Shown here in pieces: positions 1,831-54,407 of a stretch of DNA of 64,000 nucleotides. Source of the stretch: Methanotorris igneus Kol 5 (GTDB lineage: Archaea; AGJL01; Methanococci; Methanococcales; Methanococcaceae); NCBI RefSeq assembly GCF_000214415.1, contig NC_015562.1, forward strand, positions 186,001 through 250,000, read 5' to 3'. A program made the position numbers and the translations under genes. A model generated the notes under the pieces. It was given only the letters and a program-made list of their open reading frames with translations. It was not told where the DNA came from and did not search any database. Numbering within the stretch: the first letter of the stretch is position 1; each line of letters begins with the position of its first letter.

Positions 1831-1943
1831 GTTTCCATCCTTGTTTTAATGGATGAGTAATTCAAACAGTTTGAATTGGTTTTTACTCTATAACCTTAGC
1901 ACTATTGTTTCCATCCTTGTTTTAATGGATGAGGTATTCAAAC
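1831..1943 (-). CRISPR. Orphan two-repeat CRISPR mini-array
   Basis: Two 37-nt repeats (1831-1867 and 1907-1943, two mismatches apart) flank one 39-nt spacer (1868-1906). On the minus strand each repeat begins GTTTGAAT, has a CATCC/GGATG stem and ends GGATGGAAAC. The last eight bases, ATGGAAAC, are the same as in the main array at 34885-35597, although the rest of the repeat differs. A leader-like long repeat adjoins on the right, so transcription would run leftward. There are no cas genes nearby. Confidence 0.75.
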
Positions 1944-3598: not shown

Positions 3599-3642
3599 AT
3601 CATCACCAAAAAACTTTTATGTTTTTGTGGCTAAAATTTGTT

Positions 3643-3670
3643 GGCAAAACCCAAAGGGTTTTGCCGTATA
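3643..3670. repeat. Palindromic element P (GGCAAAACCC / GGGTTTTGCC)
   Basis: A near-perfect palindrome GGCAAAACCC-AAA-GGGTTTTGCC followed by GTATA. It recurs at 6411, 20710, 40824, 41068, 41165 and 42333, with relics at 38598 and 63920. Here it stands alone, without the long terminal inverted repeats, in the divergent tldD/unknown-gene promoter region. Confidence 0.85.
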
Positions 3671-6277: not shown

Positions 6278-6455
6278 TAGTTGTGTGCGTTAGAAATTGA
6301 ACATAACTTCAATAAAATTTATGGTATTAAACACTTAATTTTAAAAATTTAAAAGGGAATAATGACCACTTAAAATTTTATAAGTTTATAAATTAAGTTT
6401 AAAAATTAATGGCAAAACCCAAAGGGTTTTGCCGTATATATTTCGCACACAACTA
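6278..6455. mobile_element. Family A miniature inverted-repeat element, copy A1
   Basis: The 178-bp element has terminal inverted repeats TAGTTGTGTGCG (6278-6289) and CGCACACAACTA (6444-6455), each flanked by TA (6276-6277 and 6456-6457). It has no coding capacity. Near its right end is palindromic element P (6411-6438). The right end, ACTATATATTG, lies about 55 bp upstream of the transaldolase start, at a plausible distance for a TATA box. Confidence 0.8.
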
Positions 6456-8756: not shown

Positions 8757-8772
8757 GCCGTTTGAAACTGTT
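8757..8772 (+). promoter_or_regulatory. Conserved upstream box of RNA unit, copy 1
   Basis: GCCGTTTGAAACTGTT, 53 nt upstream of the TATATAT box that starts at 8826. The same box stands 53 nt (copy 2) and 55 nt (copy 3) upstream of the TATA box in the other two units. Constant spacing at three loci argues for a functional promoter element. Confidence 0.65.
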
Positions 8773-8854
8773 TAATTTTTCATTGACGAATGTGGACATT
8801 AATGTATTTTCGTTTTCGAAATTTTTATATATGCGTTTATATACATGTAAATAT

Positions 8855-9108
8855 AAGGATGATGCCTCTGATGAAGGTGGATACTGGAGACCTAAGGAGG
8901 CGGACTTTACTGAGTGTTAAACCTATGGGCGGAGCTGGGGTTCTCCCGGAGCGAAGCGACGGGAACTTAAAAACCGTTAGGTTTTTATGTCCGTGACAGG
9001 GATGGAGACCGATGATATGTTCCCGATGAACCCAGAGGGAACTGAGGCCGATGACATCCAAGTCCAACGTGGGCATTTGTCTATGATTGTTCACGTTGGA
9101 CAGACCCC
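8855..9108 (+). ncRNA. GC-rich structured RNA, copy 1 (hgcC-like)
   Basis: A GC-rich island that aligns with copies on the minus strand at 13789-14097 and 54146-54306. The 5' end is estimated from a TATA box at 8826. Visible pairings are GGGGT (8939-8943) with ACCCC at the 3' end (9104-9108), a CCCG/CGGG stem around GAGCGAAGCGA, AAAAACC/GGTTTTT with a GTTA loop, GTTCCC/GGGAAC (9022-9045), and GTCCAACGTG/CACGTTGGAC near the 3' end. GATGA and CTGA motifs beside the stems suggest kink-turns that could bind L7Ae. It resembles the high-GC RNAs (hgc, perhaps hgcC) described in M. jannaschii; that identity is from memory. It ends 1 bp before the convergent archease stop. Confidence 0.75.
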
Positions 9109-13763: not shown

Positions 13764-13788
13764 ATTTCTATACTTGTTTTAATGGATT
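13764..13788 (-). CRISPR. Split CRISPR repeat, leader-distal fragment
   Basis: Bases 13764-13788 match positions 1-25 of the 37-nt repeat seen at 1831-1867 (TTGTTTTAATGGAT core intact, four changes). Positions 29-37 of the same repeat (AATTCAAAC) stand at 14199-14207, on the far side of the RNA unit and against a leader-like repeat. Confidence 0.6.
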
Positions 13789-14097
13789 GGGGTCTTCCCG
13801 ATGTGAGTGTAAGTGAATTTTTATACTCGTAGAAGAGTTTTGCCATAATATTTGGGTGACATCGGCCTCAACTCTCCTCTGGGTTCATTGGAGAGTAAAT
13901 CATCGACCTCCACCCCAGCCACGGACATAAAAACCTAACGGTTTTTAAGTTCCCGTCGCTTCGCTCCGGGAGAACCCCAACTCCGCCTATGCAATGGTTT
14001 TAACCCTGCCCTCTTGGGACTCCATTTTACTCCCGCATCTGGGCAGGAGTATAAAAAACTCCCAACCGAAATCGTACAGACTTACAAGATTAAACAC
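13789..14097 (-). ncRNA. GC-rich structured RNA, copy 2 (hgcC-like)
   Basis: On the minus strand this shares with copy 1 a 60-nt block of near identity (GGGGTTCTCCCGGAGCGAAG, then CGACGGGAACTTAAAAACC, then GTTAGGTTTTTATGTCCGT), CCGAT/TCGATGAT-type motifs, AATGAACCCAGAGG and the terminal GACCCC. It has a longer 5' region with GGGAGT/ACTCC stems, and its 3' stem has diverged. The 5' end is inferred from a TATA box at 14129-14123. Length is about 309 nt. Confidence 0.7.
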
Positions 14098-14182
14098 AAT
14101 TAGCAGTTATGCATATTATCGTATATATAGTTTTCTAATACATTATTGATCACTAGTAATCACAAATGCACATATAAAACAC

Positions 14183-14198
14183 AACAGTTTCAAACGGC
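14183..14198 (-). promoter_or_regulatory. Conserved upstream box of RNA unit, copy 2
   Basis: GCCGTTTGAAACTGTT on the minus strand, identical to copy 1 and separated by 53 nt from the TATATATA box that starts at 14129. Its outer end is also the edge of the unit: the next bases (14199-14207) belong to a CRISPR repeat. Confidence 0.65.
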
Positions 14199-14428
14199 AA
14201 TTCAAACCCTTCAACTTCATCCTTATTTTGTGCCCAAATTCCCCATATAAATCTTCTTTTTTAACCCTATTTTTCTTACTCATGATTATTGAAACCCTAT
14301 ATAAAAGCAAGAAAGATTGTGCAAGTTATTCTTAAATTCAATGCACAACCATGACAATAAATATCAATAATTAGTAGAGATTTTACACAATTTAAAGCCA
14401 ATCCAAACTTAAAGCAATATAAATAACA
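14199..14428 (-). repeat. CRISPR repeat stub and leader-like long repeat, copy 2
   Basis: Nine bases of CRISPR repeat (14199-14207) are followed by a segment homologous to 1944-2160 (shared blocks AACTTCATCCTTATTTT, TTATTGAAACCCTATATAA-like, GATTGTGCAAGTT, AATGCACAACCAT, AATCCAAACTTAAA). The repeat-leader order is the same as at the orphan array, so this was once a CRISPR locus. Confidence 0.65.
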
Positions 14429-19039: not shown

Positions 19040-20110
19040 TCATAATACTCTCTTTATGGCATTCCAAATTAAAAAACTCTGTGGTTTTAAACTTTCCTCA
19101 ATTGGATTTAAAAATAAAACATTTCTTTCAATTAAAAATTCTTTTGTATCCTCATCTATTTGATATTCATTAATCTCATAGTTTTCTTTGAATAATCTCA
19201 AAGCATTTACTACCTTTTCATAATCAATCCTTTCAAACCTATTATTTTTTACCATAACCAATAATTTTTTAAGTTTAGAAGTTTTATCTTTAAGCATATA
19301 CTCTAAAACTTCATTTAAATTCTTAAAACTACTCTCTTCAACAACATATTTTATGTCCTTTGATTTTCCACCAACATAAGAATATATTAACTTCTTATCT
19401 TCATCAGGAAGTTTCTTTCCTAAAATATCTTCCGATAAAAAATCCATAAACTTTAAGGCAGTTTCTTTATCAAAATCATCCACTAATAGATATTTAACCC
19501 TTCCTTCCAAATCTCCAGTGTTATAAACATACTCAATAAACAAACTATCAGAACTTAGACAAAAAACATGACATAAGTGTTGTTCTTTTGTTAAAGAAAC
19601 TAAAAATTGGAACAATTCTTTTAATAAATATTTTTGCCCATTTAAAACAACATCTTTAATCATTTGTAATTCATCCAATATTAAAATTGGTTTTTTCCCA
19701 TTCTTTTTAACTGTTAATAACATATTATTCAAATACTGAAAAGCATCATTTATCTTCTCATCAAATAACTTATCAAATTCAACTTCAGGAATGGGAACTC
19801 CAGTCAAAACTTTAGCCCCCTTAGTTATCAACCTTAAAACCTCATTCTTGTCCTTTATCTTATCAAACAAATCACCCTTTTTTGTAGTAAAAATCGCCTC
19901 AATAAACTCCCTCTTCTCTGAAATTAAATAAGTCCTAAAATTAATATAAAATACTTTATACTCATAACCAAGCTTATCTTCTACAATATGCTTTATTAAA
20001 GTTGTTTTACCAGAATTCATAGGACCATAAACAAAATAAATATCGTCAGGCTCCCTACTCAAAATATGCAAAACTTCATTAATCTCTCTTTCTCTATTAA
20101 AAAACCTCAT
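19040..20110 (-). CDS. Archaeal STAND-type ATPase (lone paralogue of the 48.7-54.1 kb cluster)
   Basis: The 356-residue protein begins [22 protein letters not shown] and has a Walker A loop [14 protein letters not shown] (near residue 30), Walker [11 protein letters not shown], a [10 protein letters not shown] sensor segment, and [19 protein letters not shown]. It ends with a winged-helix-like C-terminal domain and [14 protein letters not shown]. This is the archaeal ATPase family expanded in Methanocaldococcus, whose roles are unclear. Its C-terminal half matches neither C-terminal type of the tandem cluster. Flanked by a short direct repeat and by mobile-element relics, so it may have arrived as a cassette. 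Confidence 0.85.
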
Positions 20111-30828: not shown

Positions 30829-34586
<3,758 letters not shown>

Positions 34587-34811: not shown

Positions 34812-34884
34812 CTAAAAAATAAAATTTCCATCCTAAGGTGATTTTAACAAATCACTTAATTTTGATAAAAAACTTCTTTTTTCT

Positions 34885-35597
34885 ATTTTCATCCCCCTAT
34901 GGGTCTGATTTTAACTATTTAAAGGACTTGTGGAGTGAATTACCTATACAGTAATTTCCATCCCCCTATGGGTCTGATTTTAACACTAACATAAAAAGAA
35001 GATAGAGAAGAGAAGATATAAGTTTCCATCCCCCTATGGGTCTGATTTTAACACAGTCATAATCATAGCAAAACCCATTGCCAGCATGTAATGTTTCCAT
35101 CCCCCTATGGGTCTGATTTTAATTTTTTGAAAAAGAAGCCCAAATAAACGACCTAATGGAGTTTCCATCCCCCTATGGGTCTGATTTTAATTAAATTTTA
35201 TTAATTCATCAATATATTTATATGTAATGTTTCCATCCCCCTATGGGTCTGATTTTAATCATATTTGGAGGCAGAGGATAACAATTATCAGAACATGTTT
35301 CCATCCCCCTATGGGTCTGATTTTAATTATATTAGTGAGATAGCACAAGCAACGGAGAGTATAGTTTCCATCCCCCTATGGGTCTGATTTTAATCGAGGT
35401 TGGTGTTTCGTGGCACAAAATTAGAAAACTTAGTTTCCATCCCCCTATGGGTCTGATTTTAATTAGAAGTGGATTTAGTGTTGAGAGAGGTTAAAGCAGT
35501 TGTTTCCATCCCCCTATGGGTCTGATTTTAATTTCGTTGTTGAAAATATTCCTTAGACCATGTATCTGTTTCCATCCCCCTATGGGTCTGATTTTAA
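34885..35597 (-). CRISPR. Type I-D CRISPR array: 11 repeats, 10 spacers
   Basis: Repeats of 30 nt start at 34885, 34954, 35022, 35093, 35161, 35229, 35297, 35364, 35433, 35502 and 35568. Spacers are 36-41 nt (39, 38, 41, 38, 38, 38, 37, 39, 39, 36). The plus-strand repeat begins GTTTCCATCCCCCTATGG and ends TGATTTTAA. The two leftmost repeats are the degenerate ones, so the leader is on the right and the transcript runs leftward, giving an ATGGAAAC handle on each crRNA. Confidence 0.97.
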
Positions 35598-35994
35598 TAG
35601 GACAATATTTTGCTCTTTTTCCTATATAAAGTTTTCTATTTGCTTCTTTTTGGGACGTTAATTTTCGAAGGGGTATTAACAGTGTTCATTTATATACCTC
35701 TGCACTTCCCTAAAAATCGTTTAAAATCGAAATAATTCTTTAAAATCGTTTTAAATCGTTAAATAAACCCTATCAATCGGGGAAAATTTGAAATATAATC
35801 TATTAGGTTTTTAAATCAAAAAATCTCAATAAATCATTAAATTTAAATATGCAAATTTTTCAAAATAAAGCACCCTTCGAAATTTGATAAAAATCCTTAA
35901 AATTAAAAAATAACCCCTAAAAATCCTTAAAATCAAAAAATAAAAATTTTTAGCGAGGGAGAGTAGTCTACTTACAATATTTAACACACCGTAA
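35598..35994 (-). promoter_or_regulatory. CRISPR leader
   Basis: About 400 bp of non-coding AT-rich sequence at the young end of the array. A minus-strand TATA box, TATATAAATG (35697-35688), is placed to start transcription near 35665, about 70 bp before the first repeat. Internal direct repeats are present: AAAATCGTTT/AAATCGTT units around 35714-35760, and AAAAATCCTTAAAAT at 35888-35903 and 35917-35931, perhaps sites for leader-binding proteins. Confidence 0.7.
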
Positions 35995-40799: not shown

Positions 40800-41113
40800 T
40801 AGTTGTGTGCGTTAGAGATATTTGGCAAAATCCAAAGGATTTTGCCGTATAATTTGAAAAGAAACCTTTAAAAAAGGTTTCATCCAAATTGGATGCACTA
40901 CCTCGCTTCGCTCGGTAGTGCCTCTTAGATATGTTATAGCTATGTGTTATAATTTGAAATATTAATTTGGAAATATGCTGTTGGTGAATTTTTAATGATT
41001 GTAAGCCATTTCAAATTTTAAGGAAGAATTATTACTATTTGAAATTCATTAATGTATAAATATAAACGGCAAAACCCATAAGTTTTGCCGTATATTAATT
41101 CCGCACACAACTA
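40800..41113. mobile_element. Family A element, copy A2, carrying hairpin element H
   Basis: A 314-bp element with terminal repeats TAGTTGTGTGCG (40800-40811) and CGCACACAACTA (41102-41113), TA on both sides. Palindrome P occurs twice (40824-40851 and 41068-41094). Between them is hairpin element H (40861-40927), absent from A1, which explains the extra length. No coding capacity. Confidence 0.8.
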
Positions 41114-45019: not shown

Positions 45020-47722
45020 ATGAAAATTTCAGTTGTAGGGACTGGTTATGTTGGTTTAATTCAAAGTGTTGGATTGGCAGAGTTTGGTTTTGAAGTTGTG
45101 GGGATAGATATTGATGAAACAAAGGTAAAGCAGTTAAATAAAGGAAAATCTCCATTGTATGAAGAAGGTTTAGAAGAGCTTTTAAAAAAGCATGTAAATA
45201 AAAATTTAACTTTTACTACATCTTATGAACCAATAAAAGATTCAGACGTTGTTTTTTTATGTGTTGGGACTCCACAGGATAATGAAGGAAATGCAGATTT
45301 AAGATTTCTGTTTTCTGCTGTTGAAAAAATGAAAGATTATTTGGATGAAAAATATAGGGTTATCGTTATAAAGTCTACTGTTCCTGTAGGAACTAATAGA
45401 AAGGTTAAAGAATTTTTGAAGGGTTATAATGTTGATGTTGTGTCAAACCCTGAGTTTTTGAGGGAGGGAATTGCAGTTTATGACTTCTTCAATCCAGAGA
45501 GAATAGTTTTAGGGTTTGAAGATCTAAGTAATAAAAAACCAATTGAAATTATGGAAACTGTCTATAAGTATTTTAAAGAGAAAAATGTTCCTTTTATAAT
45601 AACCAATTGGGAAACATCAGAATTGATAAAGTATGCTTCAAATGCTTTCTTAGCAACAAAAATATCTTTTATAAATGAGTTGGCAAAGTTATCTGATAAA
45701 GTAGGGGCAGATATAAAAACAATAAGCTATGCTATGGGTTTGGATAAGAGGATAGGAGATAAATTTTTAAATGCGGGAATAGGCTATGGTGGAAGCTGTT
45801 TCCATCCTGATGAAATACTATTTGTGGATTTTGGAGATGGATTGGAGTGTATGACATTTAAAGAACTATTTGATAAGCTAAGTAAAGATAATAAAAGATG
45901 TGTAAAAGTATTATCTGTCAATAAAAATTTAAAATTGGATTTAGTAAATCTAAAATTAATAACAAAGAGAGATTACTCTGATGATTTAATTGTTTTAAAA
46001 ACATCAATGGGAAGAGAAATAAAAATAACAAAAGACCATCCCGTTGTTGTATTGAGTGGGGATAAAATACAAGTTAAATTAGCGGAAAATATTAAGGAGG
46101 GGGATGAAGTAATACTACCTACTGGAGAATTTGGGAATAATGATGTAATTACAATAGATGTTTTAGAGGAAATAAAAAATACTCCATTAATTGAAAAAAC
46201 ATTTTTAAATAATAAAAATATGGTGTTAAATGAATTTGAGAATATAAGAACTTATCTATCAAATAAATACATTCACGATGTAAAGAAAAGTGGAACCGTA
46301 AAAGCAAAGGATATGCTACCGATAAGAAGCATATTAAATAAATATAATTATAATTCAAATAGATTATTTACTGTTAGAAGCAAATCTACAACAATTCCAT
46401 CTAAGATTAAAATAGATGGCGATTTTGCCAGGTTAATAGGGTATTATTTAGCAGAAGGTTGGATTTCAGAGGATGGTAAAAAAAATGGTGCTATTAGAAA
46501 AAGGATTGGTTTTTCATTCGGAGCTCATGAGAAAGAACATATCAACGATGTTAAAAATATATTGAATAAATTGGGTATAAAATATATTGAAAAAATTAGA
46601 AATGGTTCTCACTCTATAATAATATCTTCAAAATTATTGGCATATATCTTCGAAGAAGTATTAAAATGTGGAAATAATTGTTATAACAAGCAAATACCGC
46701 CACAAATATTTAATTCACCATCAGATATTAAATGGGAATTTTTAAAAGGTATTTTAAGAGGAGATGGTTGCATTGTTAAATTAAATAATAACAAAAATTT
46801 AGTTATTGAATATGGAACGGTTAGTAAAAAATTGGCAAATTCTTTGTTATTGCTATTGCAATCACTTGGTATAGTTGCATCATTAAAAAGATGCTACAAT
46901 AACAAAAGCACAACATTAACATACATTATAAGAATAAATGGATTAAACCAGGTTAAAAAAATCGGAGAATTATTTGGGGACAAATGGAGTAATTACAAGA
47001 AAATTACAGATAGATACAAGAGAAATATAAAACCTATTGGTTATAAAAAATTTGATAATTATGTTTCATTAAAGGTTAAATCCGTTGAAAGAGAGTATTA
47101 CGATGGAGAGGTATATAGTGTAGAAACAGATAATAATTTGTTAATATCATCTTATGGATTACTAATTCACAACTGCTTCCCTAAGGATGTTAAAGCTTTA
47201 ATAAAACAGTTTGAAAACAACAATATAGAGCCAATATTAATAAAAGCTACTGATAAGGTTAATGAGGAGCAAATAAAATGGTTCTTTGAGAAGATTAAAG
47301 GTTATTATGGAAATTTAAATGGAAAGACCTTTGCAGTTTTAGGATTGGCATTTAAACCAAATACTGATGATTTGAGGGAGAGTAGGGCAATAAAACTAAT
47401 AGATATGCTTTTAGATAGTGGAGCAATTGTAAAAGGGTTTGACTATGTGGAGAAGGCAAGAGAAAATACCATCAATATGTATAAGTTAAACAAATCCAAA
47501 GTATTTTATGGATATAACCTATATGTGTTGGACGATTTATATGAGGCAGTTAAAGATGTTGATGGAATAATAATAGCAACAGAATATGACTATAATAAAG
47601 AAGACTGGAAAAAAATAGGGAATTTGGTTAAGGAAAAAGTTATATTTGATGGAAGGAACGTTTTAGATGTTAAAAAGGTTAAAAAATTGGGCTTTAAATA
47701 CTATGGGGTTGGTAGGAGATGA
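45020..47722 (+). CDS. UDP-glucose/UDP-sugar 6-dehydrogenase with intein
   Basis: The extein parts (residues 1-259 and 719-900) form a 441-residue UDP-sugar dehydrogenase: VVGTGYVGLIQSVGLAEFGF (NAD site), KSTVPVGTNRKVK, VSNPEFLREGIAVYDFFNPE, EHIKYASNAFLA-like (SELIKYASNAFLATKISFIN), and GIGYGGS|CFPKDVKAL with the catalytic cysteine. C-terminal FAVLGLAFKPNTDDLRESRA. It oxidises a UDP-hexose to the uronate for surface polysaccharide. Same gene and intein site as MJ1054 in memory. The 3' end overlaps the epimerase gene (ATGA). Confidence 0.95.
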   Translation: MKISVVGTGYVGLIQSVGLAEFGFEVVGIDIDETKVKQLNKGKSPLYEEGLEELLKKHVNKNLTFTTSYEPIKDSDVVFLCVGTPQDNEGNADLRFLFSAVEKMKDYLDEKYRVIVIKSTVPVGTNRKVKEFLKGYNVDVVSNPEFLREGIAVYDFFNPERIVLGFEDLSNKKPIEIMETVYKYFKEKNVPFIITNWETSELIKYASNAFLATKISFINELAKLSDKVGADIKTISYAMGLDKRIGDKFLNAGIGYGGSCFHPDEILFVDFGDGLECMTFKELFDKLSKDNKRCVKVLSVNKNLKLDLVNLKLITKRDYSDDLIVLKTSMGREIKITKDHPVVVLSGDKIQVKLAENIKEGDEVILPTGEFGNNDVITIDVLEEIKNTPLIEKTFLNNKNMVLNEFENIRTYLSNKYIHDVKKSGTVKAKDMLPIRSILNKYNYNSNRLFTVRSKSTTIPSKIKIDGDFARLIGYYLAEGWISEDGKKNGAIRKRIGFSFGAHEKEHINDVKNILNKLGIKYIEKIRNGSHSIIISSKLLAYIFEEVLKCGNNCYNKQIPPQIFNSPSDIKWEFLKGILRGDGCIVKLNNNKNLVIEYGTVSKKLANSLLLLLQSLGIVASLKRCYNNKSTTLTYIIRINGLNQVKKIGELFGDKWSNYKKITDRYKRNIKPIGYKKFDNYVSLKVKSVEREYYDGEVYSVETDNNLLISSYGLLIHNCFPKDVKALIKQFENNNIEPILIKATDKVNEEQIKWFFEKIKGYYGNLNGKTFAVLGLAFKPNTDDLRESRAIKLIDMLLDSGAIVKGFDYVEKARENTINMYKLNKSKVFYGYNLYVLDDLYEAVKDVDGIIIATEYDYNKEDWKKIGNLVKEKVIFDGRNVLDVKKVKKLGFKYYGVGRR
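45797..47173 (+). other. Intein (459 aa) with LAGLIDADG homing endonuclease
   Basis: In-frame insertion from Cys260 to Asn718. Block A is CFHPDEILFVDFGDGLE, block B contains TKDHPVVV, and two LAGLIDADG-type motifs are LIGYYLAEGWIS and LKGILRGDGCIV. The C-terminal block ends GLLIHN before Cys719 of the extein, so splicing residues Cys1, His-Asn and Cys+1 are all present. The +1 cysteine is also the enzyme's catalytic cysteine. Splicing and endonuclease both look intact. Confidence 0.95.
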
Positions 47723-48699: not shown

Positions 48700-48724
48700 A
48701 TTTAAAAAATTTTTGGTGATTTTT

Positions 48725-49804
48725 ATGGACCTCTTTAATAGAGAAAAAGAAATAAATGAAATAATGTCCATCATAGAAAGTGAGCCAAATTTTATTTATT
48801 TTCTTTACGGCCCTATAAATAGTGGAAAAACAGCTTTAATAAACGAAATAATTAATAATAGATTAGATAAAGATAAATATGTAGTGTTTTATTTTGATTT
48901 GAGAGAGATTTTTATCTCTAAATATGATGATTTTATTGAAGTTTTGTTTGAGGAATATAATGAAAATAAAAAGCCAGTTGAAATAATAAAAGGTCTAATT
49001 AAAGATACTCCATTGTTATTTGGTGTTCCAGTTCCAAAGAATACTTTGGAAGAGTTATTAAATAAAAAAACCACCAAAAATGTTTTTAGATATATAACTA
49101 ACATACTATTAGAAATTAAAAAATCTGGAAAGATACCGATAATTATTTTAGATGAACTTCAAAAGATTGGAGATCTAAAGATTAACGGCTTTCTTATCTA
49201 TGAGTTATTTAACTATTTTATCAGCTTAACAAAGCATAAACACCTATGCCATGTATTTTGTTTATCTTCTGATAGCTTGTTTATAGAGAAGGTTTATAGC
49301 GAAGCAATACTAAATGGAAGAGCTAAATATCTTTTGGTCGATGATTTTGATAAAGAGACGGCAATAAAGTTTATGGATTTTTTATCTAAAAGAATTTTAA
49401 ATAAAAAGCTTTCTAATGAAGAGAAAGAGCTAATTTATAGCTATGTAGGAGGGAAGTCAATTGATATAATTTATATAATTCAAGAGCTCAAAAATAAAAA
49501 CTTAGAGGAAATTTTGGATTATTTACTTAAAGATGCTATTCAAAAGTTGGATATGTTCTTAGAAATTTTAAATTACTCTAAACCAAAAATAGAGATTGGA
49601 AATGAAATTATAGAGTTGAAAAAAGAAGACATAATTAATGCATTAAGATTATTTAAAGAGAAATATATGATAAATAAAAAGGAAATTCCAACGCCTGTTT
49701 ATATGTATTTGGTTAAGAAGAATATCTTATTTTTAAACCCTGTTGAAGGAACTTTAAGACCACAGAGTTTTTTAATCTGGAATGGGATAAAGAGATTGAT
49801 TTAA
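48725..49804 (+). CDS. Archaeal STAND ATPase, tandem copy 1 (C-terminal type X)
   Basis: First of five consecutive paralogues. ATG 48725 has GGTGAT; TTG 48713 is upstream of that site. [20 protein letters not shown] opens the protein, then Walker [15 protein letters not shown], Walker [27 protein letters not shown] and [17 protein letters not shown]. The C-terminal domain is type X ([20 protein letters not shown] ... [20 protein letters not shown]) and ends [14 protein letters not shown]. These AAA/STAND-like ATPases are amplified in methanococci and have no settled function; a role as a sensor or defence switch is speculation. Confidence 0.85.
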
Positions 49805-49824
49805 AAAATTAAAAAAGTGAAACT

Positions 49825-50874
49825 ATGAACCTCTTTAATAGAGAAAAAGAAATGAAAGAGATTCTGTCAATTATTGAATTTGAGCCGAATTTTATTTATT
49901 TTATTTATGGCCCTATAAATAGTGGAAAAACGGCTTTAATTAATGAGATAATTAATAATAGATTGGATAAAGATAAGTATGTAGTGTTTTACATAAATCT
50001 AAGAAGATATTTTATCTCAAAGTATGGTGATTTTGTTGAAGTTTTGTTTAAAGAATATGAGGAGAATAAAAAACCTATAGAGTTAGTTAAAGGCCTAATT
50101 AAAGATACTCCTATGTTATTTGGAATTCCAATTCCTAAAAATACTTTGGAAACTTTGTTATCTAAAAAAGAAGAGAAGAATATATTTGATTACATAACTA
50201 ACATTTTATTAGAAATTAAAGAAGATGGAAAACAGCCAATAATTATTTTAGACGAGCTTCAAAAGATTGGAGATCTAAAGATTAACGGCTTCCTAATTTA
50301 TGAACTATTTAATTACTTTATAAGCCTAACCAAAGAACTGCACTTATGCCACGTATTCTGCCTAAGTTCAGATAGCTTATTCATTGAGAAAGTTTATAGC
50401 GAAGCAATATTAAATGGAAGAGCTAAGTACCTCTTAGTCGATGACTTTGATAAAGAGACGGCAATAAAGTTTATGGATTTTTTATCTGAAAGGGTTTTGG
50501 ATAAAAAGCTTTCTAATGAAGAAAAAGAGCTAATCTACTCCTATGCTGGAGGAAAGCCAGTTGATATAATTTATGTGATTCAAAAGCTTAAGGATAAAAA
50601 TCTAAAAGAGGTTTTAAACTACCTCTTAAATGATGTGAAGCAAAAACTAAAATACTTCTTAGAGGACGTTAAGGAGGAAGATGAAAAGCTTTATAAAGAA
50701 GTCTTAGAAGCTTTAAAAATATTTAAAGAAAGCTATGAGGTTGAAGATATAACAATAGATAAAAAAGTTAGAGAGTTTTTAGTTAAGGGAAATATTTTAT
50801 TTTTAGATCCTATTGAAGGGATTTTAAGGCCGCAGAGTTTTTTAGTTTGGAATGCCATAAAAATATTGATTTAA
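49825..50874 (+). CDS. Archaeal STAND ATPase, tandem copy 2 (C-terminal type Y)
   Basis: 349 residues. The N-terminal ATPase part is nearly the same as copy 1 ([40 protein letters not shown]). The C-terminal part differs in kind: [40 protein letters not shown], then [14 protein letters not shown]. This Y type may carry another specificity or partner. It follows copy 1 after a 20-bp spacer (AAAAAATTAAAAAAGTGAAA-like) that is repeated between all members, with GTGA as the ribosome site. Confidence 0.85.
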
Positions 50875-50894
50875 AAAATTAAAAGAGTGAAACT

Positions 50895-51941
50895 ATGAAA
50901 TTCTTTAACAGAGATAAGGAGATTAAGAAGATTTTATCAATAATTGAGAGCGAGCCGAATTTTATTTACTTTTTATACGGTCCTATAAACTCTGGTAAGA
51001 CAACTTTAATTAATGAAATTATTAACAGGCTTGATAAGGATAGATATGTTGTATTTTATATAAACCTAAGGAGATACTTTGTTTCTAAGTATAGAGATTT
51101 TATTGAGGTTTTGTTTGAGGAGTATGAGGAAGATAAAAACCCAATTGAGTTAATTAAAAGTTTAATAAAAGATTCAAGCATTATTTATGGAATTCCAGTT
51201 CCAAAGAATACCTTAGAAGTCTTAACATCAAAAAAGGACTCTAAGAATATATTTAGATATATAACTGACATTTTAATGAAAATAAAAGAAAGCGGTAAGC
51301 AACCAATAATTGTAATAGATGAGTTACAGAAGATAGGAGATTTAGAGATAAACGGCTATTTGATTTATGAGCTTTTTAATTATTTTATAAGTTTAACTAA
51401 AGAGATGCATCTTAGCCATGTTTTCTGTCTATCTTCTGATAGTTTGTTTATTGAAAGAGTTTATAGCGAGGCGATGCTTGAGGATAGGGCGGATTATATC
51501 TTAGTAGATGACTTCGATAAAGAGACGGCTTTAAAGTTTATGGATTTCTTAGCTGGAGAGGTTTTAAATAGGGCTCTCTCAGAGGAAAAAAAAGAATTAA
51601 TTTATAACTATGTAGGAGGAAAGCCGGTTCTAATAATAAAAGTGATAAATAAAATGAGAGCTGAGGAATTAGATGAAATTTTAAATTTTATGTTGAATGA
51701 TACTAAGCAAAGGTTAAAATATTCATTAGAAGACATAAGGGAAGAAAATGAAGAGCTATATAAGGAAATAATAAAAGCTTTGAGTTTATTTAAAGAAAGC
51801 TATGAGGTTGAAGATATAACAATAGATAAAAAAGTTAGAGAGTTTTTAGTTAAAAGGAACATTTTATTCTTAGATACAATAAAAGGGGTTATAAAACCAC
51901 AGAGTTTTTTAATCTGGAATGCCATAAAAATATTGATTTAA
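50895..51941 (+). CDS. Archaeal STAND ATPase, tandem copy 3 (C-terminal type Y, most divergent)
   Basis: 348 residues with Walker [15 protein letters not shown], Walker [16 protein letters not shown] and the sensor block [17 protein letters not shown]. It differs from its neighbours in many positions across the middle ([40 protein letters not shown]). The last 60 residues are Y type and nearly identical to copy 2 ([19 protein letters not shown]), suggesting local gene conversion. Confidence 0.85.
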
Positions 51942-51961
51942 AAAATTAAAAGAGTGAAACT

Positions 51962-53041
51962 ATGGAATTCTTTAACCGAGAGAAGGAGATTAAAATAACC
52001 CTCTCAATTATTGAAGATGAGCCAGATGATACATATTTTATCTATGGCCCCATAAATAGTGGAAAAACAACTTTAATTAATGAAATAATTAACAATAAGT
52101 TGAATAAAGATAAATACGTAGTGTTTTACATAAATCTTAGGAGATATTTTATTTCCAAGTATGATGATTTTATTGCTTTACTTTTTAAAGAATATTCAGA
52201 AGATAAAAAACCATTAGAGTTAATAAAAGGCTTAATAAAAGATTCTCCTCTAATATTTGGAATTCCAATTCCTAAAAATACCTTAGAGATTTTACTATCA
52301 AAGAATGAAGAGGTTAATGTCTTTGATTATATAACAAATTTTTTATTAGATATTAAAAAAGAAGGAAAACAACCGATAATTATTTTAGATGAACTTCAGA
52401 AGATAGGGGATTTAAAAATAAACGGTTTCTTAATTTATGAGCTATTTAATTACTTTATAAGCTTAACCAAAGAGATGCACCTTAGCCATGTGTTTTGTTT
52501 ATCTTCTGATTCTTTATTTATTGAGAGAGTTTATAACGAGGCTGTGCTAAATGGAAGGGCTAAGTATCTTTTAGTTGATGACTTTGATAAAGAGACAGCA
52601 ATGAAGTTTATGGATTTTTTATCTGAAAGAATTTTAAATAAAAAGCTTTCCAATGAAGAGAAAGAATTAATTTATAGCTATGTAGGAGGAAAGCCAAAGG
52701 ATATAATTTATGTTATTAAAAGGTTAAGAGTTGAGAATTTAAAAGAAATCTTGGATTATCTATTAAATGATGCTAAACAGAAGTTAGATATGCTTTTAGA
52801 GGTTTTAGATTATTCTACACCAAAGGTCGTAGTTGGAGATAAAGAAGTTGAGGTTAAAAAAGAGGACATAATTAATGCATTAAGATTATTCAAAGAGAAA
52901 TATATGATAAATAAAAAGGAAATTCCAACGCCTGTTTATATGTATTTAGTTAAGAAGAATATCTTATTTTTAAATCCTGTTGAAGGAACTTTAAGACCAC
53001 AGAGTTTTTTAATCTGGAATGGGATAAAGAGATTGATTTAA
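51962..53041 (+). CDS. Archaeal STAND ATPase, tandem copy 4 (C-terminal type X)
   Basis: 359 residues: [20 protein letters not shown], Walker [15 protein letters not shown], Walker [14 protein letters not shown]. The C-terminus is again type X ([20 protein letters not shown], then [20 protein letters not shown]), with the last 55 residues identical to copy 1 though two Y-type genes lie between. The DNA of this end is also almost identical (52871-53041 versus 49634-49804). Confidence 0.85.
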
Positions 53042-53061
53042 AAAATTAAAAAAGTGAAACT

Positions 53062-54114
53062 ATGAAGTTCTTTAACAGAGATAAGGAGATTAAGAAGATT
53101 TTATCTATATTGGGGGATGAACCAGATGATATTTATTTTCTTTACGGCCCTATAAATAGTGGTAAAACTGCTTTAATTAATGAAATAATTAACAATAGGC
53201 TTGATAAAGATAAATATGTGGTATTCTATATAAACCTCAGGAGATACTTTATTTCTAAGTACGATGATTTTATTGAAGTTTTATTCGAAGAATATGAGGA
53301 AGATAAAAAGCCAGCTGAATTAATAAAAGGCCTAATTAAAGATTCTCCTTTAATATTCGGAATTCCAATTCCTAAAAATACATTAGAGACTTTATTCTCT
53401 GATAAAAGCGAGAAAAATGTGTTTAAGTATATAACAAATCTTTTATTAAGTATAAAGAAAGAAGATAAGCAGCCGATAATTATAATGGATGAACTTCAGA
53501 AGATAGGAGATTTAAAAATAAACGGCTTCTTAATTTATGAGCTATTTAATTACTTTATAAGCTTAACCAAAGAACTGCATTTATGTCATATATTTTGCTT
53601 AAGTTCAGACAGCCTGTTTATAGAGAAAGTTTATAACGAGGCTATGCTAAATGGAAGGGCCAAATATCTTTTAGTCGATGACTTTGATAAAGAAACCGCC
53701 TTAAAATTTATGGATTTTTTATCTGAAAGAATTTTAAATAAAAAGCTTTCCAATGAAGAGAAAGAATTAATTTATAGCTATGTAGGAGGAAAGCCAAAGG
53801 ATATAATTTATGTTATAAAAAGCTTAAAAACTGATAAACTAAAAGAAATTTTAAACTATCTCTTAAATGATGCCAAACAAAAATTAAAATACTTCTTAGA
53901 AGATGTTAAAGAGGAAAATGAAGAACTTTATAAAAAAGTAGTTGATGCTTTAAAAATATTTAAGGAAAGCTATGAGGTTGAAGATATAACAATAGGGAAA
54001 AAAATTAGAGAGTTTTTAGTTAAGAGAAATATTTTATTTTTAGATCCTATTGAAGGGATTTTAAGGCCGCAGAGTTTTTTGATTTGGAATGGGATAAAAG
54101 AGTTAAAAAGGTGA
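53062..54114 (+). CDS. Archaeal STAND ATPase, tandem copy 5 (C-terminal type Y)
   Basis: 350 residues: [20 protein letters not shown] like copy 3 at the N-terminus, but a middle like copy 4 ([35 protein letters not shown]), and a Y-type end ([40 protein letters not shown]) closing in a unique GIKELKR. The mosaic shows exchange among the tandem genes. The RNA unit copy 3 begins 32 bp beyond its stop, in convergent orientation. Confidence 0.85.
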
Positions 54115-54145: not shown

Positions 54146-54306
54146 GGGGTCTGTCCAATGTGGGTATTGGTGAGTAAGTACCCATATTGGACTTGGGCGT
54201 CATCAGCCACACGAGAGTGTCTCTGCCCCTGTCGTGGACATAAAAACCTAACGGTTTTTAAGTTCTCGTCGCTTCGCTCCGAGATGACCCCAAGCTCCAC
54301 CCATCT
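54146..54306 (-). ncRNA. GC-rich structured RNA, copy 3 (hgcC-like, shortest)
   Basis: On the minus strand: GGAGCTTGGGGTC then CTCGGAGCGAAGCGACGAG, the AAAAACC/GGTTTTT hairpin with GTTA loop, ACACTC/GTGTG-type small stem, GGCTGATGACGCC (kink-turn-like), a long GTCCAATATGGGT/ACCCACATTGGAC stem and terminal GACCCC paired with GGGGTC. The 5' end is predicted near 54306 from TATA at 54336. About 160 nt, so it defines the minimal unit. Compensating changes relative to copy 1 (CTCCCG/CGGGAA to CATCTCG/CGAGAA) support the folded stem. Confidence 0.75.
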
Positions 54307-54391
54307 ATTTTTTTTATCTTTATAAAGTCCTATATAAATATATCTAAAACTCATAAACACACATACCCTCACAAATACTTACAAAAAACTA

Positions 54392-54407
54392 AACAGTTTT
54401 GAACGGC
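54392..54407 (-). promoter_or_regulatory. Conserved upstream box of RNA unit, copy 3
   Basis: GCCGTTCAAAACTGTT on the minus strand (two changes from copies 1 and 2), 55 nt upstream of the TATATA box that starts at 54336. Confidence 0.6.

What the first reader, a model, noticed from the sequence alone, without database searches (positions are those of the whole stretch)
13764..14207. A CRISPR repeat split by a structured-RNA unit
Seen directly: bases 13764-13788 are positions 1-25, and 14199-14207 positions 29-37, of the 37-nt repeat intact at 1831-1867, next to the same leader-like sequence. Between them lies exactly the RNA unit whose ends (GCCG... and ...GACCCC) are defined independently by comparing three copies. 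Inference: the unit (upstream box, promoter and RNA) inserted as a cassette in the leader-proximal repeat, losing about three bases. Stable RNA genes are not known to me to move this way, so this may be an unrecognised mobile RNA cassette or a tool that silences a CRISPR locus.
Basis: partly seen in the sequence, partly recalled or inferred. Interest (0 to 1): 0.85.

Follow-up and report, generated by a model that had tools for sequence, protein, structure and literature searches.

The report
IS607 guide-RNA mini-element splits CRISPR repeat
The RNA unit that splits this CRISPR repeat is a stripped-down copy of a known kind of jumping gene (IS607 family) that carries the guide RNA of the transposon's TnpB protein; it landed in an already spacer-less CRISPR leader, so it is a neat but mostly explained insertion.

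Summary
A CRISPR repeat beside a genuine CRISPR leader is split at 13788/14198 by a 409-nt unit. No bases were lost: with the element's CC core counted once, the flanks rejoin to a full 37-nt repeat. They align without gaps to intact leader-proximal repeats in the same-genus genome G001.

The unit is not an unknown RNA gene. More than 30 copies lie in the genome. Some contain an IS607-family serine transposase (NCBIfam NF033518, E=3e-72) and TnpB. At least 21 are RNA-only, keeping the left end with a TATA box and the right end with the omegaRNA (reRNA), but no genes. Empty sites for other copies in G001 show target-duplication-free insertion after (T/A)G at CC, the IS607 mode. So this is a TnpA/TnpB-less IS607 derivative mobilised in trans.

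CRISPR silencing is not supported. The locus has one degenerate repeat and no spacers, and this copy's guide-proximal hairpin is broken.

The most interesting by-product is the partner TnpB. In every intact copy the third RuvC Asp is Gln, while dN/dS among relatives is about 0.1. A transposon-borne RNA-guided protein that binds but does not cut is therefore possible, though unproven.

The parts
13764..13788 (-). distal 25 nt of the interrupted CRISPR repeat (degenerate, 21/25 to the intact repeat at 1831-1867)
13789..14197 (-). IS607-derived, tnpA/tnpB-less element (409 nt, CC core at both ends: CCGTTTGAAAC...GACCCC)
   Evidence: ends shared with 30 copies
14196..14197 (-). CC core (overlap dinucleotide) at the left end
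   Evidence: left ends listed; exact CC in the empty site of copy L018
13789..13790 (-). CC core at the right end (only one of the two CC copies belongs to the target)
14045..14197 (-). left end with transposase-recognition-type sequence (GTTTGAAACTGTT) and TATA-like boxes
   Evidence: TATA-like box in 20 of 21 RNA-only copies, mostly at a fixed distance from the left end; promoter role inferred
13789..13987 (-). right end: omegaRNA (reRNA) scaffold overlapping the former 3' end of tnpB; terminal GACCCC can pair with upstream GGGGTY; guide-proximal hairpin lacks its 5' strand in this copy
14198..14198 (-). G preceding the core: native target base, part of the (T/A)G|CC target preference
14199..14207 (-). 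leader-side 9 nt of the interrupted CRISPR repeat
14208..14420 (-). CRISPR leader
1831..1867 (-). intact CRISPR repeat used for comparison (CRISPR-DR7)
8758..9108 (+). second RNA-only copy of the element family in the window
54146..54406 (-). third RNA-only copy of the element family in the window

Best explanation
The unit is a non-autonomous, MITE-like derivative of an IS607-family transposon. Shown: it keeps the two transposon ends and the structured right-end RNA (omegaRNA/reRNA) but has lost tnpA and tnpB, while intact tnpA and tnpB lie in other copies in the same genome. Inferred from the known IS607 pathway: TnpA acting in trans excised such an element as a circle and inserted it by serine-recombinase exchange at a CC dinucleotide preceded by TG, here inside a TGCC-containing variant of the leader-proximal repeat. 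That leaves no target duplication and loses no bases. Inferred: the RNA is transcribed from a promoter in the left end and binds TnpB, and sequence just past GACCCC would act as guide. In this copy that would be CRISPR-repeat sequence, but the guide-proximal hairpin is broken and no other examined repeat carries TGCC at that place, so it is most likely inert. The CRISPR locus is now a leader with one degenerate repeat and no spacers, so the insertion is most likely incidental.
For: Copies: 52 BLAST matches and 31 exact left ends in the own genome; 30 distinct right ends ending GACCCC, GAACCCC or a decayed GATCCT. Autonomous relatives: IS607 transposase NF033518 E=3e-72 with MerR HTH plus resolvase, and TnpB (Cas12f1-like TNB, guided_TnpB); tnpA open frames of 211 codons in L034, L035, L036 and L038. 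Right end overlaps the tnpB 3' end: RNA-only copies still match TnpB residues ~364-396. Empty sites in G001: L018 AAAATCG-CC-ATTCC vs AAAATTG-CC-ATTCC; L011, inside a coding sequence, GATG-CC-GCAAAA vs GACG-CT-GCGAAA, frame restored; L019; L023; and the CRISPR repeat itself against G001 leader-proximal repeats. Target preference: -1 is G in 29/31 flanks, -2 is T or A in 27/31. RNA structure: 97.8% of cells paired, 7 pairs with changes on both sides, 0 of 500 shuffles as high. IS607 mechanism (circular intermediate, GG overlap, matching dinucleotide in the target): PMC4058570. Right-flank nucleotide in the reRNA scaffold: PMC10711439.
Against: No orthologous empty site at this exact locus was available: in G001 the two neighbouring genes lie on different contigs with no leader between them. 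At four of the five aligned non-CRISPR empty sites the G001 dinucleotide is not exactly CC (CT, CT, GC, one gap), which could be divergence or looser target choice. Transcription and TnpB binding were not tested. TnpB's third RuvC Asp is missing, so guide-RNA function is uncertain. The structure model of TnpB was too poor to use (mean pLDDT 57).
Confidence: 0.93

Rival explanations
1. A self-mobile stable RNA gene of a new kind (RNA cassette) that spreads without a transposon.
For: 21 RNA-only copies with both ends, 20 of them with a TATA-like box; structured RNA.
Against: Same kind of ends and same target preference as copies with tnpA and tnpB; the RNA overlaps the tnpB 3' end; intact IS607 transposase in the genome.
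Confidence: 0.03
2. An adaptive silencer: the element was selected because it disables a CRISPR locus or redirects TnpB onto CRISPR repeats (its guide would match repeats at 15 of the first 16 positions).
For: Guide position holds repeat sequence; 78 of 79 other repeats in leader-linked arrays match 15/16 of its first 16 nt. IS insertion into cas genes and CRISPR loci is known to inactivate immunity (PMC10359306).
Against: Locus has one degenerate repeat and no spacers; none of these repeats has TGCC/AGCC in the adjacent-motif position, the closest being TGCT in 15; guide-proximal hairpin lacks one strand in this copy; TnpB lacks the RuvC-III Asp; the other insertions show no CRISPR preference.
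Confidence: 0.03
3. Insertion through another route, e.g. Cas1-Cas2 or casposase-like integration at the leader-repeat junction, or IS200/IS605 single-strand transposition.
For: Insertion lies in the leader-proximal repeat.
Against: Cas1-Cas2 would insert at repeat borders and duplicate the repeat; here the break is inside the repeat at TG|CC, exactly as at about 30 non-CRISPR sites. The transposase of the full-length relatives is IS607-type, not the Y1 type of IS200/IS605.
Confidence: 0.01

Closest known systems
IS607-family insertion sequences (MerR-HTH serine transposase TnpA plus TnpB)
   Same: Ends, absence of terminal inverted repeats and target duplications, shared core dinucleotide, tnpA-tnpB order and right-end RNA in the gene-bearing copies
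   Different: This copy has no genes; core is CC in the RNA orientation (GG on the other strand); target preference (T/A)G before the core
omegaRNA / reRNA of IS607 TnpB (e.g. ISXfa1, PMC10711439)
   Same: RNA at the right end overlapping the tnpB 3' end, pairing of the terminal GACCCC with an upstream G-run, core dinucleotide inside the scaffold
   Different: About 46-nt extra hairpin module in most copies; many stand-alone copies with their own TATA-like box; partner TnpB lacks the third RuvC Asp; this copy lost one strand of the guide-proximal hairpin
Pyrococcus abyssi repetitive ncRNAs sRkB, sRkC, sRk48, sRk52 (PMC3124441)
   Same: Repeated, separately transcribed archaeal RNA loci related to the 3' end of OrfB (TnpB) genes of IS607/IS605
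   Different: There six similar sRkB/sRkC-type loci with two transcribed; here over 20 complete copies with transposon ends and empty sites in a relative; transcription not tested here
Nuclease-dead relatives: TldR (PMC13418256) and Cas12m2 (PMC10442227)
   Same: RuvC site with a missing catalytic residue in an RNA-guided protein that is kept
   Different: Here TnpB is still transposon-borne (several copies next to tnpA); Cas12m2 has His-Asp-Asp in place of Asp-Glu-Asp, here Asp-Glu-Gln; no binding or silencing shown

Membership tests
IS607-family transposon (non-autonomous member) | TnpA is a serine recombinase with N-terminal MerR-type HTH | tested here: met
   Met in full-length relatives (NF033518 E=3e-72, PF00239, PF00376); absent from this copy, as expected for a derivative
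IS607-family transposon (non-autonomous member) | No terminal inverted repeats and no target-site duplication | tested here: met
   Empty-site alignments; ends CCGTTTGAAAC and GACCCC are not inverted repeats
IS607-family transposon (non-autonomous member) | Same dinucleotide (GG/CC) at both ends and in the target | tested here: met
   CC at left ends and at right ends (one decayed to GATCCT); exact CC in the L018 empty site; diverged in the other empty sites
IS607-family transposon (non-autonomous member) | Circular excision intermediate | not testable with these tools
   Only indirect: L037 copy begins directly at the right end GAACCCC of another copy
TnpB omegaRNA/reRNA | RNA at the right end overlapping the tnpB 3' end, guide beyond the end | tested here: met
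   Position shown; guide use not testable
TnpB omegaRNA/reRNA | Conserved guide-proximal hairpin and terminal pairing | tested here: met
   Family: 7 pairs with changes on both sides. Exception: this copy lacks the hairpin's 5' strand
Active TnpB nuclease (Asp-Glu-Asp RuvC) | RuvC-III Asp (DRDxNAA) | tested here: not met
   NRQ(V/F/L) in all intact members; other TnpBs of the same genomes keep RD or AD
CRISPR locus (CRISPR-DR7 type) | Leader followed by repeat-spacer units | tested here: not met
   Leader present but only one, degenerate repeat and no spacer

The most novel reading that the evidence does not exclude
This transposon family carries a TnpB that has lost its RuvC-III Asp but is kept under strong purifying selection, together with more than 20 mobile RNA-only guide loci that have their own TATA-like boxes. 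This would be a transposon-borne RNA-guided DNA-binding (non-cutting) system working with guide RNAs in trans, each guide set by whatever DNA the RNA-only copy lands beside.
Probability: 0.25. Interest if true: 0.72.

Novelty: new member of a known kind. Interest (0 to 1): 0.4.

Why it matters
It replaces a puzzling 'RNA gene inside a CRISPR repeat' with a specific, testable account: IS607 ends, CC core, TnpB guide RNA. It documents a high-copy archaeal family of stand-alone TnpB guide RNAs that move as their own units, with empty sites. It also points to a TnpB lineage with Asp-Glu-Gln in place of the Asp-Glu-Asp RuvC site that is nevertheless maintained by selection inside transposons, which bears on whether TnpB can serve a transposon without cutting DNA.

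Tried and rejected
Rfam at gathering and at E<=5: no known RNA family apart from the CRISPR repeat itself. Orthologous empty site at the 13.8-kb locus: not available, since in G001 the DUF1611 and CCA-transferase genes are on different contigs; genome contigs returned only a distant Nanoarchaeota hit. AlphaFold model of TnpB: mean pLDDT 57, active-site region below 50, so no fold search was run on it. Spacers against element copies: no convincing match (72 partly sampled spacers). Adaptive CRISPR silencing and re-targeting to repeats: rejected as default. A kink-turn in the RNA was considered by eye and left unclaimed.

Full report
OBSERVATION. The split repeat is real. On the - strand the sequence reads leader - GGGTTTGAATTG - CCGTTTGAAAC ... 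GACCCC - AATCCATTAAAACAAGTATAGAAAT. The leader-side 9 nt match the intact 37-nt repeat exactly. The other 25 nt match at 21 positions and alone would be weak (18.8 bits against CRISPR-DR7). What makes it certain is the adjoining 222-nt leader, which recurs at about 18 places in the genome; the full-length paralogues are 81-87% identical and most sit beside CRISPR arrays of this repeat.

NO BASES LOST. Counting the element's CC core once gives GTTTGAATTGCCAATCCATTAAAACAAGTATAGAAAT, exactly 37 nt. It aligns without gaps across the junction to leader-proximal repeats of the same-genus genome G001 (GGGTTTGAATCG-GT-AGTCCATTAAAACAAGGATGGAAA). Own-genome repeats vary at just these positions, with TGCTT, TGCTC and TGCTA variants.

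WHAT THE UNIT IS. A search of the own genome gave 52 matches and 31 exact left ends. Among distinct copies with both ends, 21 are RNA-only of 256-430 nt. Four further copies carry tnpB of one subfamily, and others are about 2 kb and carry tnpA and tnpB, with intact 211-codon tnpA frames in L034, L035, L036 and L038. The transposase is IS607 family (NF033518, E=3e-72; MerR HTH plus resolvase domain) and the second gene is TnpB. The tnpA-tnpB copies begin CCTTCCGAAACTGTT and end GACCCC. RNA-only copies still match TnpB residues of about 364-396, so the structured RNA is the right-end RNA, the omegaRNA or reRNA of TnpB.

HOW IT INSERTED. Left flanks have G at -1 in 29 of 31 and T or A at -2 in 27 of 31; right flanks show no clear pattern. 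Empty sites in G001 show clean insertion: L018 in AAAATTG-CC-ATTCC; L011 inside a coding sequence, where the joined flanks read GAT GCC GCA AAA against GAC GCT GCG AAA; and L019 and L023. [quoted passage not shown] One tnpB-bearing copy starts directly at the CC of another copy's right end (L037), as circle integration at CC would give. At four of five aligned non-CRISPR sites the G001 dinucleotide differs from CC, so strictness of the target is not proven.

THE RNA. Across 26 right ends, the guide-proximal hairpin and the pairing of GGGGTY with the terminal GACCCC give 97.8% paired cells. Seven pairs show changes on both sides, and no shuffle of 500 reaches the observed percentage paired, number of such pairs or covariation score; sliding the partner destroys the signal. 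The two window copies folded are more stable than shuffles (z -3.6 and -3.8). A TATA-like box lies in the left end of 20 of 21 RNA-only copies, mostly at a fixed distance. In the copy of the finding, the hairpin's 3' strand (CACATCGGGA, as in G001 locus L051) is present but its 5' strand (TCCCGATGTG) is missing. This copy is therefore probably a defective guide RNA. Transcription is inferred, not shown.

DOES IT SILENCE CRISPR? Not supported. The locus has a leader, one degenerate repeat and no spacer; whether spacers were present before the insertion cannot be told. The putative guide would share 15 of its first 16 nt with 78 of 79 other repeats in the leader-linked arrays examined, but none has the TGCC or AGCC expected at the adjacent position; 15 have TGCT. 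The insertion is one of about 30 at (T/A)G|CC sites, the others outside CRISPR repeats as far as seen. IS insertion in CRISPR loci and cas genes is already known (PMC10359306).

THE PARTNER PROTEIN. In all intact TnpBs of this family (own genome, G001, G021, and also the decayed G017 copy) the RuvC-III motif reads NRQ(V/F/L) where ISDra2 TnpB has DRDENAALNI and other TnpBs of the same genomes have RD or AD. The RuvC-I Asp and RuvC-II Glu are kept. Pairwise dN/dS within the two subfamilies is 0.07-0.12, so the protein is under selection. Cas12m2, with a non-canonical RuvC triad, binds without cutting double-stranded DNA (PMC10442227), and TldR proteins are RNA-guided transcription factors related to TnpB (PMC13418256). 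Whether the Asp-Glu-Gln site is inactive is not shown here; the AlphaFold model was too poor to judge.

PRECEDENT. Pyrococcus abyssi sRkB, sRkC, sRk48 and sRk52 are repeated, transcribed ncRNAs related to OrfB/TnpB 3' ends (PMC3124441). The present family extends that picture with transposon ends, empty sites and high copy number. In the library searched, no paper describing this family in Methanocaldococcus or Methanotorris was found.

VERDICT. A non-autonomous IS607 element carrying a TnpB guide RNA, inserted without base loss in a relict CRISPR leader. Known kind, new member. The TnpB active-site loss is the part worth following.

Noticed in passing
TnpB of the family, e.g. L040:2024-3211(-), L036:2060-3355(+): RuvC-III catalytic Asp replaced by Gln in every intact member across three genera, with dN/dS about 0.1.
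   Followed up: partly
window 13920-13970(-) and other right ends; absent in L014, L015, L028:153-261, L029, L051, L061: An approximately 46-nt double-hairpin module (ATCTCGGAGCGAAGCGACGAGAACTTAAAAACCGTTAGGTTTTTATGT) is present in most omegaRNAs and absent from others at the same position, also changing the TnpB C-terminus: possibly a nested mobile palindrome.
   Followed up: partly
window 34878-35598: A second CRISPR array with a different repeat (GTTTCCATCCCCCTATGGGTCTGATTTTAAT; CRISPR-DR39), downstream of a helicase gene with a weak Cas3 C-terminal match (30829-32817).
   Followed up: no
window 48713-54114 and 19040-20110(-): Five tandem paralogous ORFs, MJ1010-like ATPases (PF01637 + PF21690 in those tested), with a sixth inverted paralogue 29 kb away.
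   Followed up: no
window 45020-47722: UDP-glucose/GDP-mannose dehydrogenase interrupted by an intein with a LAGLIDADG domain.
   Followed up: no
window 3632-3670, 6400-6438, 40813-40851: Repeated palindrome GGCAAAACCCAAAGGGTTTTGCCGTATA, resembling short dispersed palindromes that also lie just beside several element copies.
   Followed up: no
genome G000:C1:661244-661395 (L198/L201): Another CRISPR leader with a single repeat and no spacers, showing that relict leaders occur in this genome.
   Followed up: no
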